Positions 8,654 through 24,900 of a stretch of 64,000 nt of DNA are shown in pieces (the stretch's first letter is position 1; every line of letters begins with the position of its first letter). A program made the position numbers and the translations under genes. Source of the DNA: Rhodococcus zopfii NBRC 100606 = JCM 9919 (lineage in GTDB: Bacteria; Actinomycetota; Actinomycetes; Mycobacteriales; Mycobacteriaceae). Below the pieces are notes generated by a model. It worked only from the letters and a program-made list of their open reading frames with translations. It did not search any database and had not been told where the DNA came from. The DNA is taken from positions 62,001 to 126,000 of the forward strand of contig NZ_BCXI01000017.1 of assembly GCF_001895025.1 (NCBI RefSeq), in the 5' to 3' direction.

Positions 8654-8671
8654 TTCTTCAGGAGTCGGCGG

Positions 8672-10342: not shown

Positions 10343-11526
10343 TCGCTTGCCCGCCACGACAGCAGCACCCGCGTCCCCCTGCCCGGTTGCGACTCCACGA
10401 CGGCGTCGCCTCCGGGTAGCTGCCGCAGGCGCCCCACAATGCTGACCGCGACCCCCAGCCGATGTGGTGACACCGCAGACACGTCGAACCCCCTGCCATT
10501 GTCGAGGACTTCGACCTTGAGTTGTCCCGGTCGAATACGTACGCTAACGGAGCGCTCGGCTTTCTCCCCGGCGTGGAGCATGCTGTTGCGGACCGCCTCG
10601 CTCACGGCGGCGCCGATCGTGCGCACCGCCTCGGCGGGCAGCGATGCGGGCATCGCCTGCGGTTCGAGATCCGCGCGAACCGCGATGCTAGGGGCGACCG
10701 CCGTGGCAGACGTCCGCAGATGCGCCACGGCGGTCTTGGCATCAAAGTCGTCGTCTGGTGCCGGATTCCGGAACTCGTCCAAACGCACGATCGCGTGCTT
10801 GGCCTGACGCGACACCGCCGGGCCCGCGCCTAGGCGGGCCGCCGACAACAATGTCGCCATCACATGGTCATGGATCAGCGCCCCGAACCGCTTGCGTTCG
10901 GCCAGCCGGGCGGCGGCACGCGCTGCGTGGGCAGCGGCTTCGTGCGAAGTGGCCCGGGTGTCGTCCAGGATCCGTCCCGTCCGCAGCGCCATGATGGCCG
11001 CCGCCACGAACAGCAGGCAGAACATGAATCCGAACATGATGTCCGGGAGGAGGGGGCCATTGACCCGGCCCACATGCGAGCCGTGGTTGAACACCTGAAC
11101 CGCGACAGTGGCTACGAGCAGGTATCCGACCGCGATGCCGGCGGGCCATGCCAGTGTTGCGGCCAGAGCGGCAAGTCCGGGAAAGAGCACCAACCAGAAG
11201 CCGGTCCGATCCGGACTCGGCGGCCCGACCCACGCCAACGGCCACGTCAGTGCGATTCCCATGTATGCCGTCGCGGCGACCGCGGCCACCGTCCGAATCC
11301 GGCCCGCGCCTTCGCGCACCCCCGCGGCGCCGAGCCAGAGACCGGACCCGAACACCACTGCCACCGCCACCGGCGTCCACCATGTCCACAGGTAGCCGGC
11401 GAAGGAGATGATGTTCGGAAGCAACAGCAGCAGATAGAAGATGTAGCCGGCACCGATGAATTGCGCGAAGGCCCGCACGATTCGATCCGATGAGGACTCC
11501 GAACCCGCAGCGTCTCCGACGGTCAT
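10339..11526 (-). CDS. Sensor histidine kinase (NarL/DesK type)
   Basis: A 395-residue kinase whose ATG overlaps the regulator stop as ATGA. Five to six membrane helices fill residues 20-190. A HisKA_3-type dimerisation helix contains the phospho-acceptor region ERKRFGALIHDHVMATLL. The HATPase domain has the N box (AVSEAVRNSMLHAG), the G1 box (VLDNGRGFD) and the G2 glycines (GGDAVVESQPGRGTRV). It should sense a signal at the membrane and phosphorylate the regulator encoded just upstream. The overlap of regulator, kinase and pseudokinase implies translational coupling and a fixed ratio. Confidence 0.9.
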   Translation of the reverse strand: MTVGDAAGSESSSDRIVRAFAQFIGAGYIFYLLLLLPNIISFAGYLWTWWTPVAVAVVFGSGLWLGAAGVREGAGRIRTVAAVAATAYMGIALTWPLAWVGPPSPDRTGFWLVLFPGLAALAATLAWPAGIAVGYLLVATVAVQVFNHGSHVGRVNGPLLPDIMFGFMFCLLFVAAAIMALRTGRILDDTRATSHEAAAHAARAAARLAERKRFGALIHDHVMATLLSAARLGAGPAVSRQAKHAIVRLDEFRNPAPDDDFDAKTAVAHLRTSATAVAPSIAVRADLEPQAMPASLPAEAVRTIGAAVSEAVRNSMLHAGEKAERSVSVRIRPGQLKVEVLDNGRGFDVSAVSPHRLGVAVSIVGRLRQLPGGDAVVESQPGRGTRVLLSWRASE

Positions 11527-12233
11527 CGCCGGTCCGGGCGTCTGGGGATCGGCAGATAACCGTCCTCGAGCGCTCGCTTGTACAGGTCGGTCTTGCTCGG
11601 TGCCGGGCGACCGGCCTCGGCGTACTTGGTGCGAATTCGTTGCAGGTACTCGGTCACGGTCGGCGTTGCCAGACCCGTCAAGCGGGCGACCCGTTCCGTC
11701 GTCTCCCCGGAGGCGTACAACTCCAAAACATGCAGTTGCCGGGGGCTCAGCCCGACCTCGGACAGCGCCGGATCACTGTCGATGGCGGCGGCCCAGTCGG
11801 TGGTGACCACCTGCTCACCGAAGGCGGCAGCGCGAATCGCCTGCACCACCACCGCGTTGGTCTCGGACTTGCGTACCACTCCGAGTACCCCTGCCGCCGC
11901 TGCTAAGCGCACCAGGTACGGGTCCTCACCGCCGGTAAATACCAGAGTTCCGATGCCGCCCGCGGTCAACCGCTGCACGTTCCCGGTCGGCGAGGAACCG
12001 TCGCTCAGCCGCAAGTCGAGAATCACTAGATCGAGATCGGATGTCACGGCCAACAACTCGTCGACAGTCGGGGCACAGGCCACCAGCGTCAAATCGGCCT
12101 GGTCGGCAAGCATCGCCGACAAGCCCGACACCACCGATTCGTGGTCCTCGACGGCGCCGATTCGGCGGGGCAGTCGACGAAGTGGCTCTGAGAGGCATGT
12201 GTCACCGTCGTGACGTCGGATTCTCACGAACAC
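11523..12233 (-). CDS. Two-component response regulator, NarL/LuxR family
   Basis: The start is taken as GTG 12233 because GGGAGG lies 8 bases upstream; nearby in-frame starts would alter only the unconserved N-terminus. The product has about 236 residues. The receiver domain has the acidic pair in GAVEDHESV, the phospho-acceptor Asp in LVILDLRLSDG, Thr in VFTGGED and Lys in VVRKSE. The C-terminal LuxR domain (LSPRQLHVLELYASGETTER, VTEYLQRIRTKYA) binds DNA. It is the first gene of the regulator-kinase-pseudokinase set. The two flanking LuxR-type genes share a C-terminal signature. Confidence 0.88.
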   Translation of the reverse strand: MFVRIRRHDGDTCLSEPLRRLPRRIGAVEDHESVVSGLSAMLADQADLTLVACAPTVDELLAVTSDLDLVILDLRLSDGSSPTGNVQRLTAGGIGTLVFTGGEDPYLVRLAAAAGVLGVVRKSETNAVVVQAIRAAAFGEQVVTTDWAAAIDSDPALSEVGLSPRQLHVLELYASGETTERVARLTGLATPTVTEYLQRIRTKYAEAGRPAPSKTDLYKRALEDGYLPIPRRPDRR

Positions 12234-12371
12234 TCTGATCGCCTCCCGCACCGAAAGTGTTTCATCGCCGCCCTCATGTAGCTCGAATCGAAGGGGTTGC
12301 GGCGCACGTACACCGTCGCAGTTACCGCCGCGGACCGGATCGACGATGGCGCCGACGTAGAGACTCCGCGG

Positions 12372-12665
12372 CTACCTCCGCTCGCGCGCGTATGCCTCTG
12401 AAAGTCGAGCGTATTCGGCACGTGCACGAACATGCTCGACATGGCGGCACGGTTCGGGATCTTTGTACCGTGGAAGAACAAGAATTAGCGGCCAGATGCT
12501 CATCAGGAACGTTGCTCCGCTGAAGAACGCATTCCAACCACCATTGATAATCTTGATCGGAACACCGTGCTTCTTCCAATAATAGTTCTTCACGACAGGG
12601 ATGCTGATCAAGAAATAGACGGTACAGAAAACAAGCCAGTAGAGCAGGAATTCCGTGGAATCCAT
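12372..12665 (-). CDS. Small membrane protein
   Basis: A 97-residue protein from ATG 12665 with AAGGAG 7 bases upstream. Two hydrophobic helices are visible (FLLYWLVFCTVYFLISIPV and ATFLMSIWPLILVL), separated by a basic loop (YYWKKHGVPIKI). The tail is charged and helical (RARAEYARLSEAYARERR). I do not recognise a family. It lies upstream of the two-component genes on the same strand, 138 bases away, and could belong to the signalling set. Confidence 0.7.
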   Translation of the reverse strand: MDSTEFLLYWLVFCTVYFLISIPVVKNYYWKKHGVPIKIINGGWNAFFSGATFLMSIWPLILVLPRYKDPEPCRHVEHVRARAEYARLSEAYARERR

Positions 12666-12781
12666 GACGATTCTCCTTGCGCTCGCACGGCGAATGGCGG
12701 TTGATCGACCTAGGATGAGTAGATCAAGCTAGCGGGACCGCGAATCGGAGGGACAGCCCGACAAACTTGTTGCTTGGACTC

Positions 12782-12820
12782 GTGAGGGCGGGGCCCGCAA
12801 AATCCGCGGGCCCCACTCAC
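12782..12820 (-). terminator. Strong hairpin behind the microprotein gene
   Basis: The left arm 12782-12798 pairs with the right arm 12806-12820: a 9-bp GGGGCCCGC/GCGGGCCCC stem, a small internal loop and a 5-bp GTGAG/CTCAC base. It lies 4 bases past the stop of the 39-codon gene. There is no clear T-run, so termination may depend on hairpin strength alone. Confidence 0.65.
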
Positions 12821-12823
12821 GTC

Positions 12824-12943
12824 CTATTTCTGCCCCGTGCCCTTACACGCCGCGCAGTTGACCCAATTTCCGAAATCACTGTGCCCACCCGTTCCATTGC
12901 AACGTGGGCACGTCGCCCGACCCATCCTGCGCAAGAACTTCAT
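12824..12943 (-). CDS. 39-residue zinc-knuckle microprotein
   Basis: ATG 12943 follows an AAAGGGGA ribosome site, and the frame ends in TAG at 12824. The product has two CxxCxGxG-type knuckles: CPRCNGTGG at residues 12-20 and CAACKGTG at 30-37, with the linker HSDFGNWVN between. Such paired motifs bind one zinc ion in DnaJ-type zinc-binding domains. A basic N-terminus (MKFLRRMGR) could contact nucleic acid or membrane. A strong hairpin directly follows the stop. The start, ribosome site, motif pair and terminator together support a real gene. Its role is unknown. Confidence 0.65.
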   Translation of the reverse strand: MKFLRRMGRATCPRCNGTGGHSDFGNWVNCAACKGTGQK

Positions 12944-13571
12944 TCTGATCCCCTTTCACATAGACCGATACAGCTATGATTTTCACACTCGTATACCGAA
13001 ACGCGCTATCGCTCGAACGGGTGACACGCAAGGACACATGTGTCCAATGAATTACCGAAACCTGCGGGTGGGCGCGGCGATGAATGACTCGAACTTGTAG
13101 TAGGCGGTTCGAGCGCGACGGGGTCTTCGGGCAGACCATCTTCGGACAAACCAAATGAGGGTTGGCGTGCCGAGAACACCGAGTTGCCAGTCCCTTCTGG
13201 ATCTGCGCGAGTTCCGAATGGGTAGTCGTCGCAGCTACGCACGAGAGTGGTGAGCGCAGGCAGAACCTCGACAGCATGCCGCTGGTGTGGGTGTTCGCCG
13301 ATGTCGCTGTGGTCACCGGGGGACTGTTCCAGTCGGGATTGACTTCCCTAGGTTGTTCACGATCGTGAGCGTCGCGCGCTGACGTTAATCTCTGTGGCGT
13401 CATATTTCGGCCGGGAGAACTCCGGCCGGCCAGTCGTTTGTTAACTGCGGTGCTTCTCACCATATGCCTTGTGGATCGGCACATGTCGGTCGAACGGGGG
13501 ATGTCCGGCGATCAGCATTGGTGTGAGCATGGTGACCGAAAAGCGTGTGGCCAGCGAGTTGCGGAGGAAAT
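12944..13571. other. Intergenic, no gene seen
   Basis: 628 bp between two divergently oriented genes (the microprotein on minus, the secreted protein on plus). It should hold both promoters. Several frames are open but none has a ribosome site, a domain or consistent codon use. Confidence 0.4.
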
Positions 13572-14108
13572 ATGTTAGGCAGATCAGCAGTTCAGTACGT
13601 CCGGGTCCGCAACGCGGTCGGCATCGCGGTAGCTCTGGCCGCGGCCTCCGTCGCTGCTCCTGCCACGGCGTCTACGAGCCCGCTGACCGGAAGCGCTGGC
13701 AGCAGCGATACCGGCAGCAGCGTCGTCGACCTTGGCAGCAGCGTCGTCGACCTCGGCAGCAGCATTGTCGGCAGTGGCAGTAGCGGGCTCTTTGCGCCGA
13801 CCCAACGGTGCGATGAATCGACCCTGTCCGGCGGCGAAGGCATCACCGACACTGTGCATCAGCTCGGTAGAGGGGGGCCGACGTCGTTCGTTCTGCGTTT
13901 TGAGACCTACGACGTCCCGGACCAGATCGAGGTCTTCTACGAAGGAGCCCTGCTCCACAACACCGGCTATATCGGCGACAACGTCAACGAAGGAACTGGT
14001 TCGGCAATGATCAATGTGCCGGCTGGGAATGCGACGTCGGTATTGGTCCGTGTCACCGGTCTCAGCGGCACCGATTGGGATTACACCGTCCACTGTCCGA
14101 TCGTGTGA
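13572..14108 (+). CDS. Secreted protein with GSSVVDL repeats
   Basis: The start is ATG 13572, with GGAGG 4 bases upstream, giving 178 residues. A Sec signal peptide (RNAVGIAVALAAASVAAPATAS) is followed by a low-complexity Gly/Ser region with three 7-residue repeats of the type GSSVVDL. The C-terminal 100 residues form a beta-rich domain (SFVLRFETYDVPDQIEVFY, VLVRVTGLSGTDWDYTVHC) with two cysteines that could form a disulphide. It resembles extracellular binding modules of the pre-peptidase C-terminal kind, but I cannot assign it firmly. It is transcribed alone. Confidence 0.75.
   Translation: MLGRSAVQYVRVRNAVGIAVALAAASVAAPATASTSPLTGSAGSSDTGSSVVDLGSSVVDLGSSIVGSGSSGLFAPTQRCDESTLSGGEGITDTVHQLGRGGPTSFVLRFETYDVPDQIEVFYEGALLHNTGYIGDNVNEGTGSAMINVPAGNATSVLVRVTGLSGTDWDYTVHCPIV
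13713..13770 (+). repeat. 21-bp in-frame tandem repeat, nearly three units
   Basis: The unit GGCAGCAGCGTCGTCGACCT plus one base occurs at 13713, 13734 and 13755, with the third copy diverged. It encodes the GSSVVDL repeats of the secreted protein. Copy number could vary between strains. Confidence 0.75.
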
Positions 14109-14552
14109 CCTTCGACCGGTCTCCGGGACAGTGGCCAAAGGCCGTCATCGGAGCCGCCACCATCTCGCATCGTGCCCGTGGGTCTTTCTCATAGACCCAC
14201 TGGCACTCTCACCTCCGCTTGGTACGTGAGGGGGCTGCCGCGGATGCGGCAGGATCCGTGGCGATGTCAGCAACAACATGATCGAGTGGAGCGTGCGTGC
14301 CGAAACCTCGCTCGCCGCCGAAGAGGCTGCGCTCGGATGCGGCTGTCAACCATCTCGATGGATGTTGCGCCGGTAGGGGGCGAAGACGCCGCTCAGCTTC
14401 GCGGTCATGTGGTCTCTGATCAGCCGCAGGAAATCCCACTGTCGACACACTCTCACGGCTCCGCAATACGCAATTCACCGATCGATGGACACCCCCCTGC
14501 CGGGAGGACGGCTAACATCACAGGGCTGCTGATGCGCAAATTAGGAGGGCAT
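14109..14552. other. Leader region of the TerD-FtsK operon
   Basis: 444 bp ahead of the GTG start at 14553. The frame of the large protein is open through it but shows no conserved sequence and no ribosome site, so I treat it as untranslated. The operon promoter should be here. No clear operator was seen. Confidence 0.4.
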
Positions 14553-17500
14553 GTGCTGGCTGAATTGGTGAAGGGACAGAACATGCCTCTCCCCGGCACC
14601 GCTGTGCGCGTGGCGATCACAGCGGCAACGCCGTTGGACGTCTCCGCGGTGGTAGTCGGGAAAGACGGCAAGGCCCGCCGGGACGAAGACTTCGTGTTCT
14701 ACAACGCGCCGACGCATCCCACCGGAATCGCACTCATAGCGGCCGGTACCGCCCTGGACTGCGAACTCGGACGCGCCGATCCCGACGCGGAAAAGGTTGT
14801 TGTGTTGCTGTCAGCCGATGACCGACCTGTTCCCGCATTCGAGGTGCGCCTGGTGACGGCCGGAGCCGACACCTCCGAGTCCTTTGCTCGGTTCCTGGTC
14901 GCACCGTCACACAACGAGACCGTGGTAATCGCCGTCGAACTGTACCTGCGCAACGACCAGTGGAAGGTCCGCGCCGTCGGCCAAGGATATGACGATGGAC
15001 TGGCCGGGGCAGCAAAGGATCTAGGAATCGAGATCGAGGACGCCCCCGACGTCACACCGCACACCCCAGCTGATCCTCAAATCAGTTCTACACCCGCACA
15101 TCAGGATGGCCCCGCCGGACCACTCGACTCCTCGCCAGCTGCCTCCCCACTCCCGATCACTCCCGAACCGGCCGTCGCCCCGCAAGCGCGGAGCGCCCCG
15201 GTGGTTGGGCCCGCAGCAGAACCGCAGCTAGTCGAACGGGCCCGCCGTTTGGACGTCGACATATCCGCTCAGCGTCGGCTGACCGAGATCTCATCGATGC
15301 TCACACGGCTGGTCGAGGTCATAGCCAGCACCTACCCACAGACCGAAATCGACCGCCGGATCACCGCCCTCGACCACACATACTCCAGTCGCTCCGAGCA
15401 GCTCAGCAAGACGATGGAGACTCTTCGATCGGCCCTGTACCACAAGTACCGAAGCAAACTTCCCAATGGGTGGGATCAGCTGAGCGACTATCCGAACACC
15501 AACGCGCCGACAACACCAGACCGATGGACGGACGAAGGCAACGCGCTGATTCAGCAAATCGTCCAATCCGGACCCGTCTTGCTCAAGGCCAACCGCCTAA
15601 CGTTGATGTCAGAGCTGGTGAACGCGACCCGCGCGCTGCTCAGCTCCTACAAGAGGGCGGTAACTACCCTCGAAGATGAAACTGCACGCAGACACCAAGC
15701 CATCTACGAAGACGAGTTCTCGACATTTGTGCGCAAGGCCGAGTCGTCGGGACACTCAGCGATTCGCACCTGGGAAGCCAGCGCCCGTGCGACGCTGCCT
15801 CACCCACACCATACGATCCGCCCGGTATGGCTGTCGGATGTCGCCGCGACTGCATTGACCACCGGCGTGGGCACCTTACATTTTCCGCTCGGACAGGTCG
15901 CCGCCACTTCCGTCAACTACGACCTGGGCGTGAATCCGGGCCGCTCGACCTCCACCACACTGAGCAAGCGCACGGACCTTCCTCTGTCCCGGGCAGTCCA
16001 TTCGATTCCCTACATCGTGGATCTCGACGAATGCGGCGGCTTCGTCACGGACGACAGGCGCATCGTCGAAAACGTGGTGTTGGACATGCTGGCCTTGCTG
16101 CCGGCCGGAAGGGTCAAGATCGACGCAGTCGACCCTGTTGAACTCGGCGCTTCCCTGAATTTCCTCTACGGTCTCGGGGATGCAGGCCCGAAGGTGTTCG
16201 GGGACAAGATATGGGGCAGCCACAACATCAGCGAATTGCTGATAGAACTAGAAAACCACGTTGCGTTCGTAACGCAGAAATACCTACAGGGCACGCACGA
16301 GACACTGACCAGCTACAATCGAGAGGCCGGTGAGGTCGCCGAGCCGTACCGGCTGGTGTTGCTGTTCGATCATCCAAAATCGTTCTCCAAGGACGGCGAG
16401 AACTGGGACCGAGAGGCCCTGACCAGGTTACGCCGTCTGGCTGACGTCGGCCGGCGGGCCGGTGTGTTCCTCCTTGCCACTGTCCCAGCGGCCACCTCAC
16501 CACACGAGGCCGTCAAACCAGCAGAACTGAGCGCATTAGCCTCGGCCATGACCAGCGGCCGAGACCCGGAGATCGTACAAGCGTTGGGTCTTCCGACCAG
16601 TGGATCCAGAAAGGGACCGGTGCATCTGTCGGACATCATCTGGCAGCTGACATCGGACACCCCGCCTACCGAGCAGCAGTTGGCTGATCTCCTTGCACAT
16701 ATCGAACGCCAGATGCACGCTGCGGCGAACGTGCAAGTCGACCCGGCCAAGGTATACGCACTCGCACAGGCCGAGGCGCACCGCGCCGCTGCCAAGGGGA
16801 CTCGACCTGACCAGGTCATCGCCGATCCCCACAATCCGAAGACCTGGTGGAGCGATCATTCCGCCAATGCTGCGGTGTCCCGATTCGGGCGCATGGGCGC
16901 TTCAAATGTTGCGGAACTGCGCATCGATTCCGGGGATTTTCCAGGCGCACTCGTCGGCGGTCGTACCGGTTCCGGAAAATCAGTGTTGCTGCACTCCTTG
17001 ATTCTCGGCTGGGCGATGCAGTACCCGCCGGAAGAACTCGAGTTCTACCTGATCGACTTCAAAGAGGGCGTGGAGTTCAAACCATACGCAGCCGGGCTGT
17101 TGCCTCACGCTCGCATCGTGGCGATCGAAACCAACCGTGATTTCGGTATCAGCGTCCTCGAAAGCCTGGACGAGGAGATCGAGAAGCGAGGAGAACTCTT
17201 CAAAGCAGTGGGCGGCGGAGAGGTCAATTTCGGCACCTACCGGAGTCAGTCCGGCGAACAACTGCCGCGGATCATCCTGGTCATCGACGAGTTCCACATG
17301 ATGCTGGAAGAAGAAGACGAGGCCAGCCGAAAGGCTGCGGCGCTGATCGAACGGGTCATCCGGCAAGGACGTGCCTTCGGCGTTCACGCAGTCCTTGCGT
17401 CTCAATCCGTGTCCGGAAGCGCCCAGAAAATTCGTGTGGCCCTTGATCAGATCAAGACTCGACTGGTTCTGTCGAGCTCGTCGAAAGACTCCGAGCTTCT

Positions 17501-18521
17501 TCTCGCAGACGGCAATGTAGATGCTCAACTGCTCGACAAGCCCGGCGAGGGCATCATCAATACCAAGGGAGGAGTGCGCGATGCAAACAACCGATTCCAA
17601 TGCGCGTACTGGTCGGGACAGGATCGGGAGGACGTAATTTCAGCCCTGCACGCATTGGCCCAACAGCGTGGATTCACCCGCCGGCCAGTGGTGTTCGAAG
17701 GGAATGCTGAAGCGCCGATCACAGATCAGCCATCGTCGCTATTTACTCGTTCATCGCCCATTGGCGAGTTGGTGTTGCCCGTGGGTGCTCCCATGTCCTT
17801 GGCTGACCCGGTGTGTATGCGGGTTGCCCGTGCCGCCGGTGGGAATATGCTGGTAATCAGTCCGGATGCGCTCGACTCGCTCGCACTGATGACGGCGTCA
17901 CTGTTGGCAACCGGCATCACCGTCGACGCCGTCGACTTCGCCGCGATGGCCTCACCATGGGACGAGGTTTTCAAGGGATTCACTGCGTACGGCGCCCGTC
18001 TGACGCACAGCCGTCAGTTCCCGTCCCTGCTGTCCGAACTCAATGAGCTGGTCATGGAGCGACATGCCCTCAACGACTTCCGTGGCCGTGGCCGAGTGCT
18101 GGTACTACCGGGTCTGCAGCGAGCACGCGACCTGAATCCCGACGACTACGACGACAAGTCGCCATCCAAGATCCTGGCGGCGATCCTGCGGGATGGTCCG
18201 GAGGTAGGGGTGCATGTCCTGGCGTGGGCAGATCGATACGCGACATTCCAGCGGCGGTTCGACCACGCATCCGCCCGCGAGTTCTCCCACAAGCTACTCG
18301 GTCCGCTCAACGAGTCCGATTCGCGGGTTCTGGCCGACTCCACAGCCGCCGCCAAGTTGACTCCGGCGCAGTTCCTGTACGACGATTTCGACACTGGTCG
18401 GCAGCTTGTGACTCGTCGGTTCAGTCTTCCGAAGGATCCCGTTCCGGATAAGACCCTTGTGGAGACAACGCAGTGGCTGTGGTCCTTGGCGGAGCAGTCG
18501 ACGGATACGAGCGATGTCTGA
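14553..18521 (+). CDS. TerD-FtsK/SpoIIIE fusion ATPase
   Basis: The start is GTG 14553, with GGAGG 4 bases upstream, so the product has 1322 residues. Residues 1-165 form a TerD-like domain (MPLPGTAVRVAITAATPLDV, DEDFVFYNAPTHPTG, WKVRAVGQGYDDGLAG), but without the GDNLTGxGxGDDE calcium-binding loop of true TerD. A Pro/Ala linker and a helical region follow (about 230-390). The FtsK/HerA-type motor has Walker A in GGRTGSGKSVLLHS (near 805) and Walker B in ILVIDEFHMML (near 910). A second, degenerate ATPase-like domain ends the protein. Such motors pump DNA or, in type VII secretion (EccC), proteins. The next gene overlaps by 8 bases, which marks an operon. The fusion of a stress-response domain to a translocase is unusual. 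Confidence 0.88.
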   Translation: MLAELVKGQNMPLPGTAVRVAITAATPLDVSAVVVGKDGKARRDEDFVFYNAPTHPTGIALIAAGTALDCELGRADPDAEKVVVLLSADDRPVPAFEVRLVTAGADTSESFARFLVAPSHNETVVIAVELYLRNDQWKVRAVGQGYDDGLAGAAKDLGIEIEDAPDVTPHTPADPQISSTPAHQDGPAGPLDSSPAASPLPITPEPAVAPQARSAPVVGPAAEPQLVERARRLDVDISAQRRLTEISSMLTRLVEVIASTYPQTEIDRRITALDHTYSSRSEQLSKTMETLRSALYHKYRSKLPNGWDQLSDYPNTNAPTTPDRWTDEGNALIQQIVQSGPVLLKANRLTLMSELVNATRALLSSYKRAVTTLEDETARRHQAIYEDEFSTFVRKAESSGHSAIRTWEASARATLPHPHHTIRPVWLSDVAATALTTGVGTLHFPLGQVAATSVNYDLGVNPGRSTSTTLSKRTDLPLSRAVHSIPYIVDLDECGGFVTDDRRIVENVVLDMLALLPAGRVKIDAVDPVELGASLNFLYGLGDAGPKVFGDKIWGSHNISELLIELENHVAFVTQKYLQGTHETLTSYNREAGEVAEPYRLVLLFDHPKSFSKDGENWDREALTRLRRLADVGRRAGVFLLATVPAATSPHEAVKPAELSALASAMTSGRDPEIVQALGLPTSGSRKGPVHLSDIIWQLTSDTPPTEQQLADLLAHIERQMHAAANVQVDPAKVYALAQAEAHRAAAKGTRPDQVIADPHNPKTWWSDHSANAAVSRFGRMGASNVAELRIDSGDFPGALVGGRTGSGKSVLLHSLILGWAMQYPPEELEFYLIDFKEGVEFKPYAAGLLPHARIVAIETNRDFGISVLESLDEEIEKRGELFKAVGGGEVNFGTYRSQSGEQLPRIILVIDEFHMMLEEEDEASRKAAALIERVIRQGRAFGVHAVLASQSVSGSAQKIRVALDQIKTRLVLSSSSKDSELLLADGNVDAQLLDKPGEGIINTKGGVRDANNRFQCAYWSGQDREDVISALHALAQQRGFTRRPVVFEGNAEAPITDQPSSLFTRSSPIGELVLPVGAPMSLADPVCMRVARAAGGNMLVISPDALDSLALMTASLLATGITVDAVDFAAMASPWDEVFKGFTAYGARLTHSRQFPSLLSELNELVMERHALNDFRGRGRVLVLPGLQRARDLNPDDYDDKSPSKILAAILRDGPEVGVHVLAWADRYATFQRRFDHASAREFSHKLLGPLNESDSRVLADSTAAAKLTPAQFLYDDFDTGRQLVTRRFSLPKDPVPDKTLVETTQWLWSLAEQSTDTSDV

Positions 18522-19458
18522 CGCGGCGCATGTCGACCCCGACGCAGTAGTTCGATTGGGTGCCGACTTGAACAGCTACACCCGCGTCGGTGATGAGGTC
18601 AGAGCGGCAGCGGCGTCCGCAGCCGCATCCGTGCTCCGGCACATCGATGCCGAACTCGACCGGCGCCGGCTCGAACTACAGCGGGCCGAGGACGCCTATG
18701 CGGCGTGCATGCGCGGCGAAGACGCCGACTGTAGCGTCGAACGACGGCAGGTGAACCGAGCCCAGGTGCGGCTGACCGTCGCCCAAGGGTGTCTGCAGCG
18801 TTTCCGGGTCGCTAAGGAGCAATACGACCAGGACAGTGCCCGATATCGATCCGCGGTGTCGCATGTCAACGACCAGGCACAGAGGCGACTAGCGCAGATC
18901 GCCACAGATTTGGGGATATACCAGCAATTCGCATTGCACACCAGCCCAGGGGGCGGACATACGGTGGCGTTCGGCGGTGGGGGCCGCCACACGTCGTCCG
19001 GAGCCAGTACCGGGGGCGGTTGGTCCGTCGGTACCGGCGGTCCTGGTCAATCGACGGGCGACATCGTGTACAGACCGCCCGGCATCCCTGACGGCTATTC
19101 GCTGGTGCCGCTGGCGCTGATCGATGATTCGGACAGCCGGGTGGGAGGTCCGGAGGACTTCAAGATGGACTGTTCTCCTGAGGATCTCGAGTGGGGATTC
19201 ACAGCACTGCAGCAGGTTGTCCTGCCAGCACTGGCTCGTGGCAAGAGCCTGGACTACTTCCGAGATCGGGACACTCGCGATGGACTGATGGGCAATCGCA
19301 GCTACTCCGACACTTACACCGGATTCTTCGGTGCGTCGGAAGCTCCACGCTTCACCCGACAGGTGAACGGGACCTTTCGTATCGCGAATGGATTCCACCG
19401 CGTCTGGGTAGCCCGACGGTTGGGTCTAGATTCTGTTCCCGGCCAGGTGGTGGACTAG
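18514..19458 (+). CDS. Coiled-coil protein with ParB-like C-terminal segment
   Basis: The ATG at 18514 overlaps the stop of the FtsK-like gene, so translation is coupled. The product has 314 residues. Residues 15-140 are almost entirely helical and coiled-coil-like (HIDAELDRRRLELQRAED, RRQVNRAQVRLTVAQG, ending RLAQIATDLGIYQQF), reminiscent of WXG/LXG leader domains. A Gly/Ser/Thr linker follows. The last 25 residues contain NGFHRVWVARRLGLDSVPGQ, close to the ParB/Srx signature NGxHRxxAARxLGxxxVP. The layout of a helical leader, flexible linker and C-terminal module is that of secreted effectors, which would fit an EccC-like ATPase. It could equally be a DNA-binding adaptor. Confidence 0.65.
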   Translation: MSDAAHVDPDAVVRLGADLNSYTRVGDEVRAAAASAAASVLRHIDAELDRRRLELQRAEDAYAACMRGEDADCSVERRQVNRAQVRLTVAQGCLQRFRVAKEQYDQDSARYRSAVSHVNDQAQRRLAQIATDLGIYQQFALHTSPGGGHTVAFGGGGRHTSSGASTGGGWSVGTGGPGQSTGDIVYRPPGIPDGYSLVPLALIDDSDSRVGGPEDFKMDCSPEDLEWGFTALQQVVLPALARGKSLDYFRDRDTRDGLMGNRSYSDTYTGFFGASEAPRFTRQVNGTFRIANGFHRVWVARRLGLDSVPGQVVD

Positions 19459-19680
19459 ATGAGCCGACTGCACCGCAGCAGGGAAATCCATGCCCAGAAC
19501 ATCAACCGCCGTCGCGCCGCTGAATCCGCTGCAGGAGATCTATGGCGGGACGTGGTGTTCAAGCGGATCGAAGACCGGGAACTGGCCGACCTCGATGCGG
19601 CAGACCATCGTTTTCAGGCGTCGTTGATCGAATTCGACCTCGAGATCGACCGGATCCTGGGCACCCTGGACGGGCACTGA
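19459..19680 (+). CDS. Small helical protein of the TerD-FtsK operon
   Basis: The ATG at 19459 begins directly after the previous stop. The 73-residue product is highly charged and helical (REIHAQNINRRRAAESAAGD, IEDRELADLDAADHRFQASL). There is no signal peptide or membrane segment. Position and size suggest a partner or chaperone for the neighbouring coiled-coil protein. No known family is recognised. Confidence 0.6.
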   Translation: MSRLHRSREIHAQNINRRRAAESAAGDLWRDVVFKRIEDRELADLDAADHRFQASLIEFDLEIDRILGTLDGH

Positions 19681-19719
19681 CCAACACACTCGACAACCAC
19701 CGGAGACCGAGGAGACGAC

Positions 19720-19983
19720 ATGGCCGGCGTCAACGCTGATCCCAGCTCACTGCGCACACTCCGCGCCGACATCGATCGGACGCAAAGGGAGATCAAGCAG
19801 GCGATCGCTCGCACTCGCGGTGCGTTGCGCAGCGCCCAGTGGAAGGACTCGATGAAAGATCAGTTCGAGCGAGAACTGGAATCGACACTGCGCACCCTCG
19901 ATGCATTCGACCGCAACGCCGACCAACTCAAAGCGCACCTGGACCGGAAGGCCCGCGAATTGGACCAATACCTGGGTCGCTGA
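19720..19983 (+). CDS. WXG100-like small helical protein
   Basis: ATG 19720 follows GAGGAG. The 87-residue product fits a helical hairpin: helix 1 (LRTLRADIDRTQREIKQAIA), a turn with ARTRGALRSAQWKDSMKDQF, then helix 2 (ESTLRTLDAFDRNADQLKAH). Size and layout match WXG100/ESAT-6-type proteins, which are substrates or cofactors of EccC/FtsK-like ATPases. The W-x-G turn is replaced by WKD, so the match is structural, not exact. It is the last gene of the operon led by the TerD-FtsK ATPase. The tail ends KARELDQYLGR, with no classical type VII signal. Confidence 0.6.
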   Translation: MAGVNADPSSLRTLRADIDRTQREIKQAIARTRGALRSAQWKDSMKDQFERELESTLRTLDAFDRNADQLKAHLDRKARELDQYLGR

Positions 19984-20230
19984 AGTATGACAGGAACCCA
20001 TGTGACCTTCAGTATCGAGGCGACTTGTGGCTGGCCTAATGTTGCGGTGCGCTGCGATACCACCTCCCCTCAAAGTTCGACCCGGAGTTGTCGCCAGCTA
20101 CGCACTTGTCCGGCGCCAAAGGAGGCTGTCGGAGCATGCACGGCACCGATGGTGGTTACGCTTTCTGTGGTGACGGCTATCGCTCAGACCTTGACCACCG
20201 AAGCGAGTGCTCGGCACACCTTCCTTCCTA

Positions 20231-21460
20231 GTGCCGCACCCGTGAACCTTTGCCCCGTTGCAGCCGACACGCCGACCAGATGCGGAGTGTCGGCTACGGC
20301 ATCGGTCAGCCTGGGCAGGTGGCAGAACGAGTACGAGTGCGAGAACTCGATGACGACGAAGGTAAACGACTGGTGCGGATCCTGCGCCGGGGCACCGGAT
20401 CGGTGGTGACCTGGCGGCGTGCCCAGATGATCCTGCTCTCCGCTCAGGGCATGCCGGTCCCGAAGATCGCCGAGATCAGCTTCACCAGCGCCGACCGTGT
20501 CCGCGACGTGATCCACAACTTCAACACCGACGGATTCGATTCGCTGTACCCGAAGTATGCCGGCGGACGGCCCAAGAAATTCACTCTTCCCGAACGCCGG
20601 GAGATCAAGAAGATCGCCAAGTCCACCCCCGTCGAGCACGATCTGCCGTTCTCCACCTGGAGCCTGACCAAACTCGCCGAGTTCCTGGTCGCCGAGGGGG
20701 TGGTCGACGACATCAGCCACGAAACTCTGCGCGTGCTGCTCCGCGAGGAGGGTGTCTCCTTTCAAAAAGTGAAGACGTGGAAGAGATCTCGGGATCCCGG
20801 GTACGCGGTGAAGAAAGCTCGGGTCGAGCATCTGTATGCGATCGCCGACGGTGAGGTTGTCGCCGAGTCCGGAGAGCCGGAGGTCGTGTTCTGCCTCGAC
20901 GAGTTCGGGCCGCTGAACCTGCAGCCGCATCCCGGCCGGCAGTGGGCCGAGCGTGGCGGCAAGCACAAGGACCCGAACCGGGAACCGCGACGCCGACGGC
21001 GGGCGACCTATACCCGTCCGCACGGGGTGCGGCATCTGTTCGCGGCCTACGACCTGGGCGCGGACAAGCTGTATGGGCACGTCAAGACGACGAAGAACCG
21101 CACGAAGTTCCTCGAGTTCTGCCGGTACCTGCGCACCTTGTATCCGGCCGCGGTGCGCATCGCGATCGTGTGCGACAACTTCTCCCCGCATCTGACGACG
21201 AAGAAGTGTCGGCGGGTCATCGAGTGGGCGGAGGCGAACAACGTCGAGATCGCGTACACCCCGACGAACAGTTCGTGGTTGAACAGGATCGAGGCGCAGT
21301 TCACCGCGTTGCGGTACTTCGCGCTCGACGGCACCGACCACAGCAGCCACCGCGAGCAGGCATCGATGATTCGGCGTTACATCATCTGGCGCAACAAGCA
21401 TGCCCAAGATCAACGGCTACGGGACATCGTCAACAGGGCAAACGTAGCCTGATGCGGCAC
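20231..21460 (+). mobile_element. Intact IS630-family element
   Basis: The element is 1,230 bp and is flanked by TA at 20229-20230 and 21461-21462, the target duplicated by IS630/Tc1-mariner elements. Its ends are inverted repeats: the left reads GTGCCGCACCCGTGAACCTT, the right (complement) GTGCCGCATCAGGCTACGTT; both go on to TTGCCC-GTTG. It contains one complete transposase. It separates the TerD-FtsK operon from terD/terC. Confidence 0.88.
20319..21452 (+). CDS. IS630-family transposase
   Basis: Starting from GTG 20319 the product has 377 residues; a TTG at 20250 would extend it. The N-terminal helix-turn-helix (RRAQMILLSAQGMPVPKIAE) and linker precede the DDE catalytic core: first Asp in VVFCLDEFGPL, second Asp in IAIVCDNFSPH, and Glu in NSSWLNRIEAQF. 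All residues needed for cut-and-paste at TA sites are present, and both ends of the element look intact, so it should be active. The stop lies 8 bases inside the right end. Confidence 0.92.
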   Translation: MAERVRVRELDDDEGKRLVRILRRGTGSVVTWRRAQMILLSAQGMPVPKIAEISFTSADRVRDVIHNFNTDGFDSLYPKYAGGRPKKFTLPERREIKKIAKSTPVEHDLPFSTWSLTKLAEFLVAEGVVDDISHETLRVLLREEGVSFQKVKTWKRSRDPGYAVKKARVEHLYAIADGEVVAESGEPEVVFCLDEFGPLNLQPHPGRQWAERGGKHKDPNREPRRRRRATYTRPHGVRHLFAAYDLGADKLYGHVKTTKNRTKFLEFCRYLRTLYPAAVRIAIVCDNFSPHLTTKKCRRVIEWAEANNVEIAYTPTNSSWLNRIEAQFTALRYFALDGTDHSSHREQASMIRRYIIWRNKHAQDQRLRDIVNRANVA

Positions 21461-21462
21461 TA

Positions 21463-21790
21463 GCCGAAACGTGACGGCCGAAGAGACAACTGTGGAATGC
21501 GTGCTCCGACCGGGTAGGACCGCACTAGTCGAAGCACCTTGCCGCAACGGGTGCGCCAATTCCGCCTCGTAGAATCGGTCCCGCGTCGTCCTGTCGGCAT
21601 CGATGCGGCTATGGCAGCTACCGGATCCACGCTCGAATCCGGTACTCAGCGCGGGCTGGGTACCGGGAAGCTGGAGCGGCCCCTTATCTTCTGTTGGGTG
21701 GTCTAGCGGGGGCATGATCGCCTCACCGTTCTGTTCCCTGCGAGTGCATTGGTATTCGGAGGGTTCCGTCAACTCGAAGGAGTCCATTTC
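21463..21790. other. Upstream region of terD, no gene seen
   Basis: 328 bp between the IS630 end and terD. It should carry the terD promoter. The IS insertion may have split this region from sequence at 19984-20230, which likewise holds no clear gene. Confidence 0.4.
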
Positions 21791-22366
21791 ATGGGTGTTA
21801 CTCTCGCCAAGGGTGGCAATGTGTCGCTGTCCAAGCAGGCAGCCAATCTGACTGCGATCACCGTCGGTCTGGGCTGGGACCAGCGCACCACCACCGGGGC
21901 CGATTACGATCTCGACGCCTCCGCGCTGCTGACCGGCTCGGATCGCAAAGTGTTGTCCGACCGGCACTTCGTGTTCTACAACCAGCTCAAGTCCCCCGAC
22001 GGTGCCGTCGAGCACACCGGCGACAACCTCACCGGTGAAGGTGACGGCGACGACGAGTCGATCAACGTCGACCTGATCGCCCTCGACCCGAAGGTGACGA
22101 ACATCTTCTTTCCGGTGTCGATCCACGACGCGGTCCAGCGGGGCCAGTCGTTCGGTCAGGTGATCAACGCCTTCATCCGTATCGTCGACCGCAACACCGG
22201 CATCGAGCTGGCCCGCTACGACCTGACCGAGGAAGCCTCCACCGAGACCGCCATGATTTTCGGCGAGGTCTACCGCAGCGGCGCCGAATGGAAGTTCCGC
22301 GCCGTCGGACAGGGCTACGCCTCCGGGCTCGAAGGCATCGCCCGCGACTACGGCGTCAACATCTGA
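21791..22366 (+). CDS. terD: TerD-family stress protein
   Basis: ATG 21791 follows AAGGAG at 8 bases. The 191-residue product is a full-length TerD: MGVTLAKGGNVSLSK at the N-terminus, the calcium-binding loops around YDLDASALLTGSD and TGEGDGDDESINVDL, and the C-terminal WKFRAVGQGYASGLEGIA. TerD proteins bind calcium and act in the cytoplasm in tellurite, phage and oxidative-stress resistance, usually with TerC at the membrane. The DUF475/TerC gene follows, after a long hairpin. Unlike the TerD domains at 14553 and 24900, this copy keeps the acidic loop. Confidence 0.95.
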   Translation: MGVTLAKGGNVSLSKQAANLTAITVGLGWDQRTTTGADYDLDASALLTGSDRKVLSDRHFVFYNQLKSPDGAVEHTGDNLTGEGDGDDESINVDLIALDPKVTNIFFPVSIHDAVQRGQSFGQVINAFIRIVDRNTGIELARYDLTEEASTETAMIFGEVYRSGAEWKFRAVGQGYASGLEGIARDYGVNI

Positions 22367-22386
22367 CCGACGCGACCGTTTCCTTC

Positions 22387-22452
22387 GGTCGTCCCGCCGC
22401 CGCACCGGCGCACTGAGCATCGACGCTCGGCCCAGTGCGGGGCGGGACGACC
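22387..22452 (+). promoter_or_regulatory. 66-nt compound hairpin between terD and terC
   Basis: GGTCGTCCCGCC (22387-22398) pairs perfectly with GGCGGGACGACC (22441-22452). Nested inside, CGCACTG (22409-22415) pairs with CAGTGCG (22433-22439) and GAGC with GCTC around a six-base loop. It begins 20 bases after the terD stop and ends 25 bases before the terC start. It could be a partial terminator/attenuator or a processing site that sets the terD:terC ratio. Confidence 0.65.
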
Positions 22453-22477
22453 GCCTCAGACAGAAAGGCCACGTTCT

Positions 22478-23590
22478 GTGGTTCTGCGCATTTTCGGCGT
22501 CTCGTTCGCCGTCACGGTCGTCTCCCTGGTGGTGGCGTTCCTCTACGGCGGGCCGCAGGCGCTGCTGCTCGCCACCATCCTCGGCATCCTCGAGGTCTCG
22601 CTCTCCTTCGACAACGCCGTCATCAACGCCACCGTGCTCCGGCGGATGAGCGAGTTCTGGCAGAAGATCTTCCTCACCGTCGGCATCCTGATCGCCGTGT
22701 TCGGCATGCGGCTGGTCTTCCCGCTGGTCATCGTCTGGCTCGCCTCCGGTCTCGGCCCGGTCGCCGCCCTCGATCTGGCGCTGAACCCGCCGCCGGACGG
22801 TGCCGCGTACTTCCCCGACGGCTCCCCGAGTTACGAAACGCTCATCACCGCCGCGCATCCGCAGATCGCCGCGTTCGGCGGCATGTTCTTGCTCATGCTC
22901 TTCCTCGGATTCGTCCTCGAGGAAAAGGAGATCACCTGGCTGTCGTGGCTCGAGCGTCCCCTCGAACGGATCGGCAAGCTCGACCAGCTCGAAGTGGTCA
23001 TCGCCACCGCCCTGCTGGTGCTCACCGCGGTGTACATCGCCCCGGACGATCAGACCTCCACCGTCATGATCGCCGGCGCCTTGGGCATGATCACCTACAT
23101 CGCCGTCAACGGACTCGGGGAGCTGTTCAACGTCGAACACGACGACGCGCAGGCCGGTCGCTCCGGTCCGACCGAGCTGGCCAAGGCCACCGGCAAGGCC
23201 GGGTTCTTCCTGTTCCTCTACCTCGAGGTGCTCGACGCGTCGTTCTCCTTCGACGGCGTCATCGGCGCGTTCGCCATCACCGCAGACCCGATCATCATCG
23301 CCCTGGGCCTGGGCTTCATCGGCGCGATGTTCGTGCGCTCCCTGACGGTGTACTTGGTCCGGCAGGGCACCCTGTCCGAGTACGTGTACCTCGAACACGG
23401 CGCCCACTGGGCCATCGGTGCCCTCGCCTTGATCCTGCTGTACTCGATCGGCACCCACGTCTCCGAGATCGTCACCGGCCTGGTCGGGGTCGTCCTCATC
23501 GTGGCCGCCCTGGTCTCGAGCATCGCCCGTAAGCGCCGCAATCCCGACGACGATGTCGATACCGCCGATCGGGTCTCGGTGTCCGTGTAA
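22478..23590 (+). CDS. TerC-like DUF475 integral membrane protein
   Basis: GTG 22478 follows AGAAAGG. The 370-residue product has about eight to nine membrane helices. The TerC signature appears twice: EVSLSFDNAVINATVL in the first half and EVLDASFSFDGVIGAFAIT in the second, each carrying acidic residues within the membrane that are thought to bind a metal ion. The extra length over classic TerC and the FVLEEKEITWLSWLE loop fit the DUF475 subfamily, which regularly neighbours terD. TerC-type proteins have been linked to manganese/calcium export and to anchoring of Ter complexes. The C-terminal tail is cytoplasmic and charged. Confidence 0.9.
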   Translation: MVLRIFGVSFAVTVVSLVVAFLYGGPQALLLATILGILEVSLSFDNAVINATVLRRMSEFWQKIFLTVGILIAVFGMRLVFPLVIVWLASGLGPVAALDLALNPPPDGAAYFPDGSPSYETLITAAHPQIAAFGGMFLLMLFLGFVLEEKEITWLSWLERPLERIGKLDQLEVVIATALLVLTAVYIAPDDQTSTVMIAGALGMITYIAVNGLGELFNVEHDDAQAGRSGPTELAKATGKAGFFLFLYLEVLDASFSFDGVIGAFAITADPIIIALGLGFIGAMFVRSLTVYLVRQGTLSEYVYLEHGAHWAIGALALILLYSIGTHVSEIVTGLVGVVLIVAALVSSIARKRRNPDDDVDTADRVSVSV

Positions 23591-23646
23591 CCCCGTCACC
23601 GTTCACGCCGCGGCCTCCCTCTGGGGTCGTGACAGCGGTAAATGTG

Positions 23647-23732
23647 GTGATGCCGCCGGGCTCGGTCCGATGCGGGCCCTGCGGCATCACTGGAGGGTCG
23701 CTGGGCAAGCCGGCCGTTTCGCTGGCTTGCCC
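23647..23732. terminator. Two hairpins between convergent ter genes
   Basis: GTGATGCCG (23647-23655) pairs with CGGCATCAC (23682-23690). GGGCAAGCC (23703-23711) pairs with GGCTTGCCC (23724-23732). They fill the gap between the terC-like stop and the stop of the TerD-TerA gene on the other strand, so they probably form a bidirectional terminator. No T-tract. Confidence 0.65.
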
Positions 23733-23760
23733 ACCAGCCCTCAAGCGATGCCAACGGGCG

Positions 23761-24900
23761 TCACTTGTAGAGATTCAGCGGTCCCGCATCCATCGTCAGT
23801 TGGCCGCGGTGGTCGAGTAGCGGACGGTATTCGGAGTTCGGTCGACTGTAAAGTTCGACAGCATCGATTTCGACGCCGTGAGCTCTGTTCCACACGATCG
23901 CCGGTACACAGGTGTAGATGTTGTCGTGCCGCTGCGCGTGCCGCGCATCGACGGTGACGACATCGCCGGCGCCGTTGTCCACGGCGAGAGACACCTTGTA
24001 GCGATGGAACGAGCCGGTTCCGTTCGACTGGGCCGAGTACGCCACCGGAACAACGCACACGATGTCGTCGTTGAGCCGGATCTCGACCTTCTCCACGGCG
24101 CGGCCGCGTCGGCCGGCGTCCCGGCCGATGTCACCACAGTGCCGGACTGCGCCTGCGGCGACGACCGGAGTGAAGTAAGGATTGTCCGCGGTGCCGAACT
24201 GCGCGGCAGTCTCGACGTGGCCGTCCCGGAACAACACAAGGGCGTACACGTCGTAGTCGGTTTCGGAATTCCACGAAACCGTGGCGGTAATTGCTGCGGT
24301 CTTGGCCATCGATACACGCTGGCCCTTGTCGAGATTGATCTTGCCTTTCGCCAAGTTCACCTGCGTCGGGGGAGCCGCGGCCGGAGCCGGGACAGCGGGG
24401 GCGTCGTCGACGGTGACGCCGTGCTCGGTGACCAACGCCGCCAGACCGCCCTCCCAGCCGGCCGAGACATTGCGGACCTTCCAGCGCCCGTTGTACCGGT
24501 AAACCTCGAGCAAGACCGCCGAGCGTTCCGTGGTCAAGCCCACCGCCGGCGCCGTCACCACCGCACCGGTGGCCTGACTGGCCGTCACCGCCAGCGACGG
24601 AACCGACGACAGCGGACCGGGAACCGACCCGTCGACGGCGACCGCGACCACGATCCTCGCCACCGCCGCCGGTACGGCGTGCAGATCTACCCGTACCTGA
24701 CCCGAGGACACCAGCATGACTGCGCCCTCGGGGGACCGCGGGTTGTTGAAAAAGACCAGGTCGTCATCGCTACGGACCTTGCGATTGTCACCGAGCTGGA
24801 AAACGAACAAGTCAACACTGCCCGGCGCGGTGCCGGTGACGGCAAGGGTCGTGGCCGCAGTGTCGATGCCAATGTTGGCACCACGCGTCAAGGTGGTCAC
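23761..24900 (-). CDS. TerD-TerA fusion protein
   Basis: Taken from GTG 24900, which opens VTTLTRGANIGID, the usual N-terminus of this family; the ribosome site (GAGAGG, 12 bases away) is weak. The product has 379 residues. Residues 1-170 are a TerD domain (DDLVFFNNPRSPEGAV, WKVRNVSAGWEGGLAAL) that lacks the acidic calcium loop. A Pro/Ala linker is followed by a TerA-type domain (QVNLAKGKINLDKGQRVSM, then VSWNSETDYDVYALVLF and an end with EIDAVELYSRPNSEY). TerA-like proteins form part of a cytoplasmic ter complex with TerD. It converges on the terD-terC pair, and the three genes make up a compact ter unit. Confidence 0.85.
   Translation of the reverse strand: MTTLTRGANIGIDTAATTLAVTGTAPGSVDLFVFQLGDNRKVRSDDDLVFFNNPRSPEGAVMLVSSGQVRVDLHAVPAAVARIVVAVAVDGSVPGPLSSVPSLAVTASQATGAVVTAPAVGLTTERSAVLLEVYRYNGRWKVRNVSAGWEGGLAALVTEHGVTVDDAPAVPAPAAAPPTQVNLAKGKINLDKGQRVSMAKTAAITATVSWNSETDYDVYALVLFRDGHVETAAQFGTADNPYFTPVVAAGAVRHCGDIGRDAGRRGRAVEKVEIRLNDDIVCVVPVAYSAQSNGTGSFHRYKVSLAVDNGAGDVVTVDARHAQRHDNIYTCVPAIVWNRAHGVEIDAVELYSRPNSEYRPLLDHRGQLTMDAGPLNLYK

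What the first reader, a model, noticed from the sequence alone, without database searches (positions are those of the whole stretch)
14553..19983. Operon that joins a TerD domain to an FtsK/EccC-like motor, with coiled-coil and WXG100-like partners
The sequence shows a TerD domain fused in frame to a single-Walker-motif FtsK/HerA ATPase, an 8-base gene overlap, then a coiled-coil protein with a ParB-like end, a 73-residue helical protein and an 87-residue helical hairpin. FtsK-like ATPases plus WXG100 proteins are the core of type VII secretion; TerD proteins belong to a stress and phage-resistance complex. Neighbouring terD, DUF475/TerC and TerD-TerA genes suggest one system: a ter-linked translocase exporting the coiled-coil protein or moving DNA. 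This linkage is inference.
Basis: partly seen in the sequence, partly recalled or inferred. Interest (0 to 1): 0.82.

Follow-up and report, generated by a model that had tools for sequence, protein, structure and literature searches.

The report
TerD-fused EssC-like motor operon
A four-gene operon on a soil-bacterium plasmid makes a probably soluble relative of the type VII secretion motor fused to a stress-system domain, with two small helical partners and a coiled-coil protein; it looks like a new version of a poorly understood, defence-linked kind of molecular machine rather than an ordinary secretion system.

Summary
A TerD domain is fused in frame to an FtsK/EccC-type ATPase (14553-18521), followed, after an 8-base overlap, by a 314-residue coiled-coil protein and proteins of 73 and 87 residues. 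All six TerD-ATPase fusions read keep this order (four are one syntenic locus in one genus); one further locus keeps it without TerD. The ATPase aligns co-linearly with EccC as three P-loop-fold domains, only the middle one with a Walker A motif; EccC's last domain and, probably, any membrane anchor are missing. The 87-mer is a divergent WXG100 protein (WxD, not WxG) whose best solved match is H. pylori HP0062. The coiled-coil protein is modelled with a ParB/sulfiredoxin-like end. No YxxxD/E export signal was found in the three small proteins.

The layout matches the EssC-like ATPase/two WXG100/coiled-coil-effector cassette already described in CoCoNuT III-A loci, here with TerD fused on. I think a cytosolic, signal-gated remodelling machine for stress or phage defence is more likely than secretion; that function is inferred. 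Relatives carry TerY-P or Hsp70/DnaJ/GrpE genes instead. New variant of a known kind.

The parts
14553..18521 (+). TerD - linker - three P-loop-fold domains (degenerate D1, active D2, degenerate D3); EccC/EssC-like ATPase without evident membrane segment, 1322 aa
   Evidence: Pfam TerD and FtsK_SpoIIIE; profile comparison with itself and with EccC; one Walker A
14553..15020 (+). fused TerD domain (residues 1-156), lacking the acidic loop of the canonical TerD in the same window
16959..16982 (+). Walker A motif GRTGSGKS of the middle ATPase domain (residues 803-810)
18514..19458 (+). 314-aa coiled-coil protein: two long helices (9-66, 74-142), low-confidence linker (143-183), C-terminal ParB/sulfiredoxin-like domain (about 190-313)
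   Evidence: AlphaFold2 mean pLDDT 76.6, pTM 0.40, 4 sequences; Foldseek; alignments
19459..19680 (+). 73-aa protein with W-x-D invariant in 4 of 4 aligned and a hydrophobic residue at +8; WXG100-like by pattern and position only
   Evidence: no significant Pfam or PDB match
19720..19983 (+). 87-aa divergent WXG100 protein (W-x-D, F at +8, C-terminal Y-x-G-R)
   Evidence: Pfam WXG100 17.5 bits, cut-off 27.3; PDB profile hits HP0062 and EsxB; alignments
20228..21463 (+). IS630-type insertion (inverted repeats 20228-20260 / 21431-21463; transposase 20280-21452), absent from the sister plasmid; not part of the system
21791..22366 (+). canonical terD, possible associate
22478..23590 (+). DUF475 (TerC-like) membrane protein, possible associate
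   Evidence: annotation; hydropathy 2.66
23761..24900 (-). TerD-family protein (two TerD stretches), neighbour

Best explanation
The operon encodes a cytosolic EccC/EssC-derived motor controlled by a TerD domain. Shown: the in-frame TerD fusion; three P-loop-fold domains with one Walker A, in the middle one; two small W-x-D proteins, one a recognisable WXG100 relative; a long helical hairpin protein modelled with a ParB/sulfiredoxin-like end; the conserved operon. Inferred: the two small proteins and the hairpin half of the CC protein dock together on the motor, as WXG100/LXG complexes do on EssC (recalled); a Ter-linked signal acting through TerD, possibly at the membrane via TerC/DUF475, gates ATP hydrolysis; the motor then remodels or releases the ParB/Srx-like effector inside the cell, where it acts on nucleotides or DNA. 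The outcome would be a stress or anti-phage response, parallel to the CoCoNuT III-A cassette whose coiled-coil protein carries a nuclease.
For: Profile alignment with EccC: 698 columns, E 6e-52; D1 and D3 match D2 (E 7e-10, 8e-14; one-to-one comparisons). No membrane-like segment in the ATPase, CC, P73 or P87 by hydropathy. Same four-gene order in the 6 TerD fusions read and in L051 without TerD. D2 tree: 28 members of this family split from 12 EccC at 100/100; the TerD-fused motors join L051 and a TerY-P-linked motor at 98/90. The published cassette has the same layout (PMC11090510, section 10), and a relative on a Caballeronia plasmid lies in such a locus. Effector fold. A WXG100 above the Pfam cut-off (32.0 of 27.3 bits) sits in the related operon L167.
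Against: No call shows a function, an effector activity or an interaction. The fused TerD lacks the acidic loop of canonical TerD, so it may not bind the usual ligand. Foldseek E-values for the ParB/Srx end are 0.01-0.34 and its profile finds SbnI only at E 0.79. On the tree the CoCoNuT-like motor L181 does not group with the TerD-fused ones; its place is unsupported (88/18). A second, weaker register with EccC (657 columns, E 5e-26) would give a different domain correspondence. Hydropathy ranges of this family and of EccC overlap. Four of the six fusions are one syntenic locus, with no terD or DUF475 found in the 18-19 kb read.
Confidence: 0.45

Rival explanations
1. A minimal type VII-like export system: the motor docks on an unknown channel or on the TerC/DUF475 membrane protein and exports the CC protein with its two WXG-like partners.
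For: The motor profile is most like EccC in the PDB (4nh0 E 2.7e-31, EccC5 5e-30). The 87-mer is WXG100-related. A long hairpin protein with two small hairpins resembles an LXG toxin with its partners (recalled); small WXG100-related cosecretion partners are proposed in PMC11217815 (abstract).
Against: No evident membrane segment, no counterpart of EccC's last ATPase domain, no YxxxD/E in CC, P73 or P87 of four loci. The CC gene as a whole has dN/dS 0.13-0.19 and its C-terminal domain aligns in 5 of 5 loci, unlike a diversifying toxin.
Confidence: 0.2
2. A DNA motor: the FtsK-like ring moves DNA and the ParB/Srx-like end of the CC protein binds nucleotide or DNA, for plasmid upkeep or for attack on invading DNA.
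For: FtsK/SpoIIIE family; ParB structures are among the first Foldseek rows for the CC C-terminus; the sister plasmid is typed conjugative.
Against: The motor scores higher for EssC (114.5 bits) than for FtsK (34.4 bits); WXG-like partners are not typical of DNA translocases (recalled). The operon also lies on contigs of 4.2 and 9.4 Mb, so plasmid upkeep is not its general role.
Confidence: 0.17
3. A lineage-specific relic with no present function.
For: Rare: 3 fusions among 301 genomes of the family sample; 1 of 72,556 plasmid records holds the CC gene at E <= 1e-3.
Against: Intact frames in homologues 36-56% identical and dN/dS at most 0.19 for each gene.
Confidence: 0.04

Closest known systems
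EssC-like ATPase + two WXG100 + coiled-coil nuclease cassette of Type III-A CoCoNuT loci (eLife 2024, PMC11090510, section 10 read; it cites Anantharaman et al. 2012, not held)
   Same: Three ATPase-fold domains with only the middle one active; no transmembrane part; two WXG100-like genes; a coiled-coil protein with a C-terminal effector domain; a Ter-type neighbour or partner
   Different: TerD fused to the motor; ParB/Srx-like end in place of the D-ExK nuclease; no TerY-P or McrBC-type genes seen beside it; WxD motifs; a CoCoNuT-like motor (L181) does not group with it on the tree
Type VII secretion ATPases EccC/EssC
   Same: Co-linear domains over 698 columns
   Different: No evident membrane anchor, no counterpart of the last ATPase domain, far below equivalog cut-offs, separate 100/100 side of the D2 tree
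Helicobacter pylori HP0062 (WRD hairpin clustered with an FtsK gene; PMC3397514 and PMC4978471, passages)
   Same: Best PDB profile hit of the 87-mer (E 9e-4); same W-x-D with F at +8
   Different: The H. pylori gene cluster itself was not compared here
Hsp70/DnaJ/GrpE-linked EssC-like ATPase modules (Hsp70 in 12 of 29 loci read)
   Same: Same ATPase family; a small gene of 86-91 aa within three genes in 10 of the 12
   Different: Chaperone genes in place of TerD; those small proteins lack the W motif; the coiled-coil partner has a C-terminal membrane segment in the two loci checked, L142 and L144

Membership tests
Type VII secretion system (EccC/EssC + WXG100) | Membrane-anchored ATPase with the full set of C-terminal ATPase domains | tested here: not met
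   Best alignment with EccC ends before EccC's last domain (a weaker register exists); EssC/EccC cut-offs not reached; max hydropathy 1.62, inside TerD, against 1.61-2.97 in 12 EccC (ranges overlap, so the anchor part alone is weak)
Type VII secretion system (EccC/EssC + WXG100) | WXG100 partner with WxG motif | tested here: inconclusive
   87-mer 17.5 bits, homologues 19.5, 19.4, 25.5, cut-off 27.3, with WxD; an 87-mer in the related operon L167 passes (32.0)
Type VII secretion system (EccC/EssC + WXG100) | YxxxD/E export signal (motif recalled) | tested here: not met
   None in CC, P73 or P87 of window, L139, L140, L051; in L167 one match at residue 3 of its 87-mer, an unlikely place
Type VII secretion system (EccC/EssC + WXG100) | Membrane partners (EccB/D/E or EssA/B, EsaA) | tested here: inconclusive
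   None among the 20 window ORFs Pfam-scanned; not every ORF scanned, rest of genome not searched
CoCoNuT III-A EssC-like cassette | Three ATPase-fold domains, only the middle one active, no transmembrane part | tested here: met
   feature as given in PMC11090510
CoCoNuT III-A EssC-like cassette | N-terminal coiled coil on the ATPase | tested here: inconclusive
   Helices at 78-257 of the body in a model of mean pLDDT 41.5
CoCoNuT III-A EssC-like cassette | Two WXG100 proteins and a coiled-coil protein with effector domain | tested here: inconclusive
   P87 is WXG100-related, P73 by pattern only, CC protein present with a ParB/Srx-like end instead of a nuclease
CoCoNuT III-A EssC-like cassette | TerY-P triad and McrBC-type genes beside it | tested here: not met
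   None among the 20 window ORFs Pfam-scanned nor in the 33 annotated features of the sister plasmid stretch
Ter stress system | TerD domain and a TerC-type membrane protein | tested here: met
   TerD fusion; terD and DUF475 nearby; the link of DUF475 to the operon is by position only
ParB/sulfiredoxin fold (CC C-terminus) | Fold match | tested here: inconclusive
   First 29 Foldseek rows: sulfiredoxins, ParB/Noc, an RK2 repressor, PadC, SbnI, free serine kinase, 1vk1 (titled only as hypothetical); E 0.01-0.34, none <= 0.001; not shown by VIA-align, whose rows cover the helices
Sulfiredoxin | Catalytic GCHR motif (recalled) | tested here: not met
   NG[FY]HR in 5 of 5 aligned

The most novel reading that the evidence does not exclude
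A whole class of soluble, EssC-derived motors works inside the cell with small hairpin partners (WxD type in several branches), exchangeable control parts (TerD fusion, TerY kinase/phosphatase, Hsp70/DnaJ/GrpE) and exchangeable coiled-coil effectors. They would be signal-gated protein-remodelling machines of defence, not secretion systems, and the TerD fusion would show Ter sensing physically coupled to the motor.
Probability: 0.35. Interest if true: 0.72.

Novelty: new variant of a known kind. Interest (0 to 1): 0.5.

Why it matters
What TerD proteins do is a long-standing open question (recalled). A covalent TerD-motor fusion in a small conserved operon fixes TerD's partner and gives a four-protein system that can be purified and tested. 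It also adds to the evidence that EssC-type motors with WXG100-like partners exist in probably soluble, perhaps non-secretory forms under several control modules, which bears on how type VII machines arose.

Tried and rejected
Canonical type VII secretion: not filed as such (membership tests). Chance juxtaposition: same gene order elsewhere. Polymorphic toxin with a variable end: the CC C-terminal domain aligns in 5 of 5 loci and the gene is under purifying selection. Plasmid upkeep as general role: contigs of 4.2 and 9.4 Mb. The 73% identity between the window terD and the fifth gene of G226 is not special: two other TerDs of the same genome are 86% and 73% identical to it.

Led nowhere: AlphaFold2 of the 1166-aa ATPase body (mean pLDDT 41.5, 4 sequences; only quoted as inconclusive); PDB search with the 73-mer profile; viral-contig scan with the CC alignment (45 pattern matches, 0 relatives); phage records (4 weak matches to the ATPase domain); the genome-contig scan, spent on the whole fusion, kept 80 loci of which 79 match only the TerD end; VIA-align. 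A count of small same-strand genes near the motor (22 of 29 loci) does not discriminate: control 7 of 12. No remnant of the fifth gene was found beside the window operon.

Dropped or partial: of the genomes with matches, 12 of 17 new ones were read (not G516, G525, G561, G591, G597). L055 (G153) was fetched but my gene caller did not find the motor in it, so it was left out. L148 (665-aa call) counts among the 29 loci but not in the profiles or tree; L181 is in those but not among the 29 loci; L052 (no Walker A) was left out of profiles and tree. Clusters were single-linkage, so all TerD-bearing genes fell in the motor's cluster.
Full report
OBSERVATION. The ATPase body and the CC protein are 100% identical to those of plasmid NZ_CP126457.1 of Rhodococcus sp. 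AH-ZY2 (201 kb, typed conjugative), where the four genes are annotated only as 'FtsK/SpoIIIE domain-containing protein' and 'hypothetical protein'. Window 39001-63999 matches 74 plasmid records, all Rhodococcus or Prescottella, so I infer that the window is a Rhodococcus-type plasmid. Between the operon and terD the window carries an IS630-type element with inverted repeats 20228-20260/21431-21463; AH-ZY2 lacks it (window 6135-20231 and 21460-28358 abut there).

MOTOR. Pfam finds TerD at residues 1-156 and FtsK_SpoIIIE at 763-954. I split 28 family members around their Walker A. The regions before (D1) and after (D3) it match the middle domain (D1 vs D2 E 7e-10; D3 vs D2 E 8e-14), and the whole aligns co-linearly with 12 EccC proteins (698 columns, E 6e-52). 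In that register the active D2 pairs with EccC's first canonical ATPase domain (D2 alone E 1e-39) and EccC's last domain has no counterpart. A second, weaker register (657 columns, E 5e-26) would shift this by one domain. These are one-to-one comparisons, so the E-values are for a search of one profile. By hydropathy the window motor peaks at 1.62, inside TerD; 12 EccC peak at 1.61-2.97; the relative L146 reaches 2.3. A membrane anchor is therefore unlikely rather than excluded. NCBI cut-offs for EssC/EccC are not reached (114.5 of 778.4; 106.5 of 509.15; 71.1 of 346.55 bits).

PARTNERS. The 87-mer scores 17.5 bits for Pfam WXG100 (cut-off 27.3); three homologues score 19.5, 19.4 and 25.5. An 87-mer in the related operon L167 passes (32.0), as does the small protein beside the Caballeronia relative (30.8). 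A profile of four 87-mers finds HP0062 (3fx7, E 9e-4; 2gts, 1e-3) and EsxB (4iyh, 0.009) first among PDB sequences. W41, D43, F49 and Y84-x-G-R are invariant in 7 of 7 aligned, of which L139 and L198-L200 are near-identical. HP0062 has WRD at its hairpin bend and is described in a gene cluster with an FtsK/SpoIIIE protein (PMC3397514, passages); PMC4978471 (passages) calls WxG plus FtsK genes with a TerY-P triad a minimal type VII set. The 73-mer has W-x-D in 4 of 4 and a hydrophobic residue at +8 but no significant database match. The CC protein was modelled from 4 sequences at mean pLDDT 76.6, pTM 0.40: helices 9-66 and 74-142, low confidence at 143-183, then an alpha/beta domain. Foldseek's first 29 rows are sulfiredoxins, ParB/Noc proteins, an RK2 repressor, PadC, SbnI, a free serine kinase and 1vk1, E 0.01-0.34. 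A profile of five C-terminal domains puts SbnI first among PDB sequences at a non-significant E 0.79; the profile of the whole protein found none of these folds. The Cys of sulfiredoxin's GCHR (recalled) is F or Y here, so, if the fold holds, nucleotide binding is likelier than sulfiredoxin activity.

CONSERVATION. The motor body matches in 12 of 301 family genomes at E <= 1e-32 and 19 of 150 order genomes at E <= 1e-40, own genome included. Of the 12, three (window, G449, G226) have TerD; no TerD match was seen in the motors of the other nine. The CC protein occurs in 4 of 69 sampled genomes of G449's genus, all four with TerD-motor, CC, 73, 87 and a 181-aa fifth gene in one synteny. So six fusions were read, from three contexts. 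In G226 the fifth gene is 517 aa; its start resembles the 181-aa gene (43%) and its end is a canonical TerD. L051 has the four genes without TerD. L167 has motor, 87, CC, 79 without TerD. Within the genus dN/dS is 0.16-0.19 (motor; three species, L199 not used), 0.13-0.19 (CC), at most 0.13 (73-mer), at most 0.03 (87-mer) and at most 0.10 (fifth gene); the two small genes differ at few sites.

FAMILY. On a tree of the D2 domain (40 rows, midpoint root, no FtsK outgroup) 28 members of this family split from 12 EccC at 100/100. Three TerD-fused motors form a 100/99 clade and join L051 and L141 at 98/90. The Caballeronia motor L181 falls elsewhere, next to the Hsp70-linked ones, without support (88/18). 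L141 has vWA and PP2C genes above Pfam cut-offs and a kinase below it, a TerY-P-like set. Twelve of 29 loci read carry an Hsp70 gene within three genes of the motor. In L142 Hsp70, DnaJ and GrpE pass Pfam cut-offs, and on a R. pseudokoreensis plasmid NCBI annotates Hsp70, TPR and GrpE. L181 lies in a vWA, WXG100, three hypotheticals, FtsK, CARF, vWA, PP2C, kinase, AAA locus, much as described for Type III-A CoCoNuTs. That paper's section 10, read whole, describes an EssC-like ATPase with three domains of which only the middle is predicted active, an N-terminal coiled coil, no transmembrane part, two WXG100 proteins (one without the motif) and a coiled-coil nuclease, and says that Anantharaman et al. 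2012 saw the WXG100/FtsK operon as a probable mobile, stand-alone unit. PADLOC models (SspH 1.4e-26, mad8 9.7e-22, several HerA) match only the ATPase domain.

LITERATURE. TerD+FtsK+WXG100 and TerD+EssC gave 0 papers. 'TerD domain'+FtsK gave 2: passages of one describe no such fusion, the other was seen as a listing only. The library lacks most subscription journals, so the fusion may be in print elsewhere.

MECHANISM AND JUDGEMENT. Shown: architecture, operon, family. Inferred: that the hairpins control the motor, that TerD brings in a Ter signal, that the CC end is the effector, and that the outcome is stress or phage defence. Against secretion: no evident membrane segment, no counterpart of EccC's last domain, no YxxxD/E in the three small proteins of four loci, a conserved CC protein. 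Against a strong Ter link: the fused TerD lacks the acidic loop of canonical TerD; terD-DUF475 occurs on at least 7 other plasmids among the 12 listed, without the motor; and the one-genus locus has no terD or DUF475 nearby. I file it as a new variant of the soluble EssC-like/WXG100 cassette, not as a type VII system and not as categorically new.

Noticed in passing
window 20228-21463: IS630-type insertion absent from the sister plasmid NZ_CP126457.1 (99.9% identical over the rest of 12000-28000): a recent event between the operon and terD.
   Followed up: yes
L053, L142-L147, L168, L170, L171, L173, L175: Hsp70 genes (with DnaJ/TPR and GrpE in several) within three genes of a soluble EssC-like ATPase in 12 of 29 loci read; 10 of the 12 also have a small gene of 86-91 aa within three genes.
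   Followed up: partly
   Followed up: partly
L140 4042-5595 (-) and L139 5453-5998 (-): Fifth gene of the operon: an unknown domain, in L140 fused to a canonical TerD; no Pfam match to the 181-aa form.
   Followed up: partly
L144 12522-13340 (+): 272-aa downstream protein without Pfam match, possibly another effector of the Hsp70-type module.
   Followed up: no
window 39001-63999: Helicase, Fic-family and other regions shared with many Rhodococcus and Prescottella plasmids.
   Followed up: no
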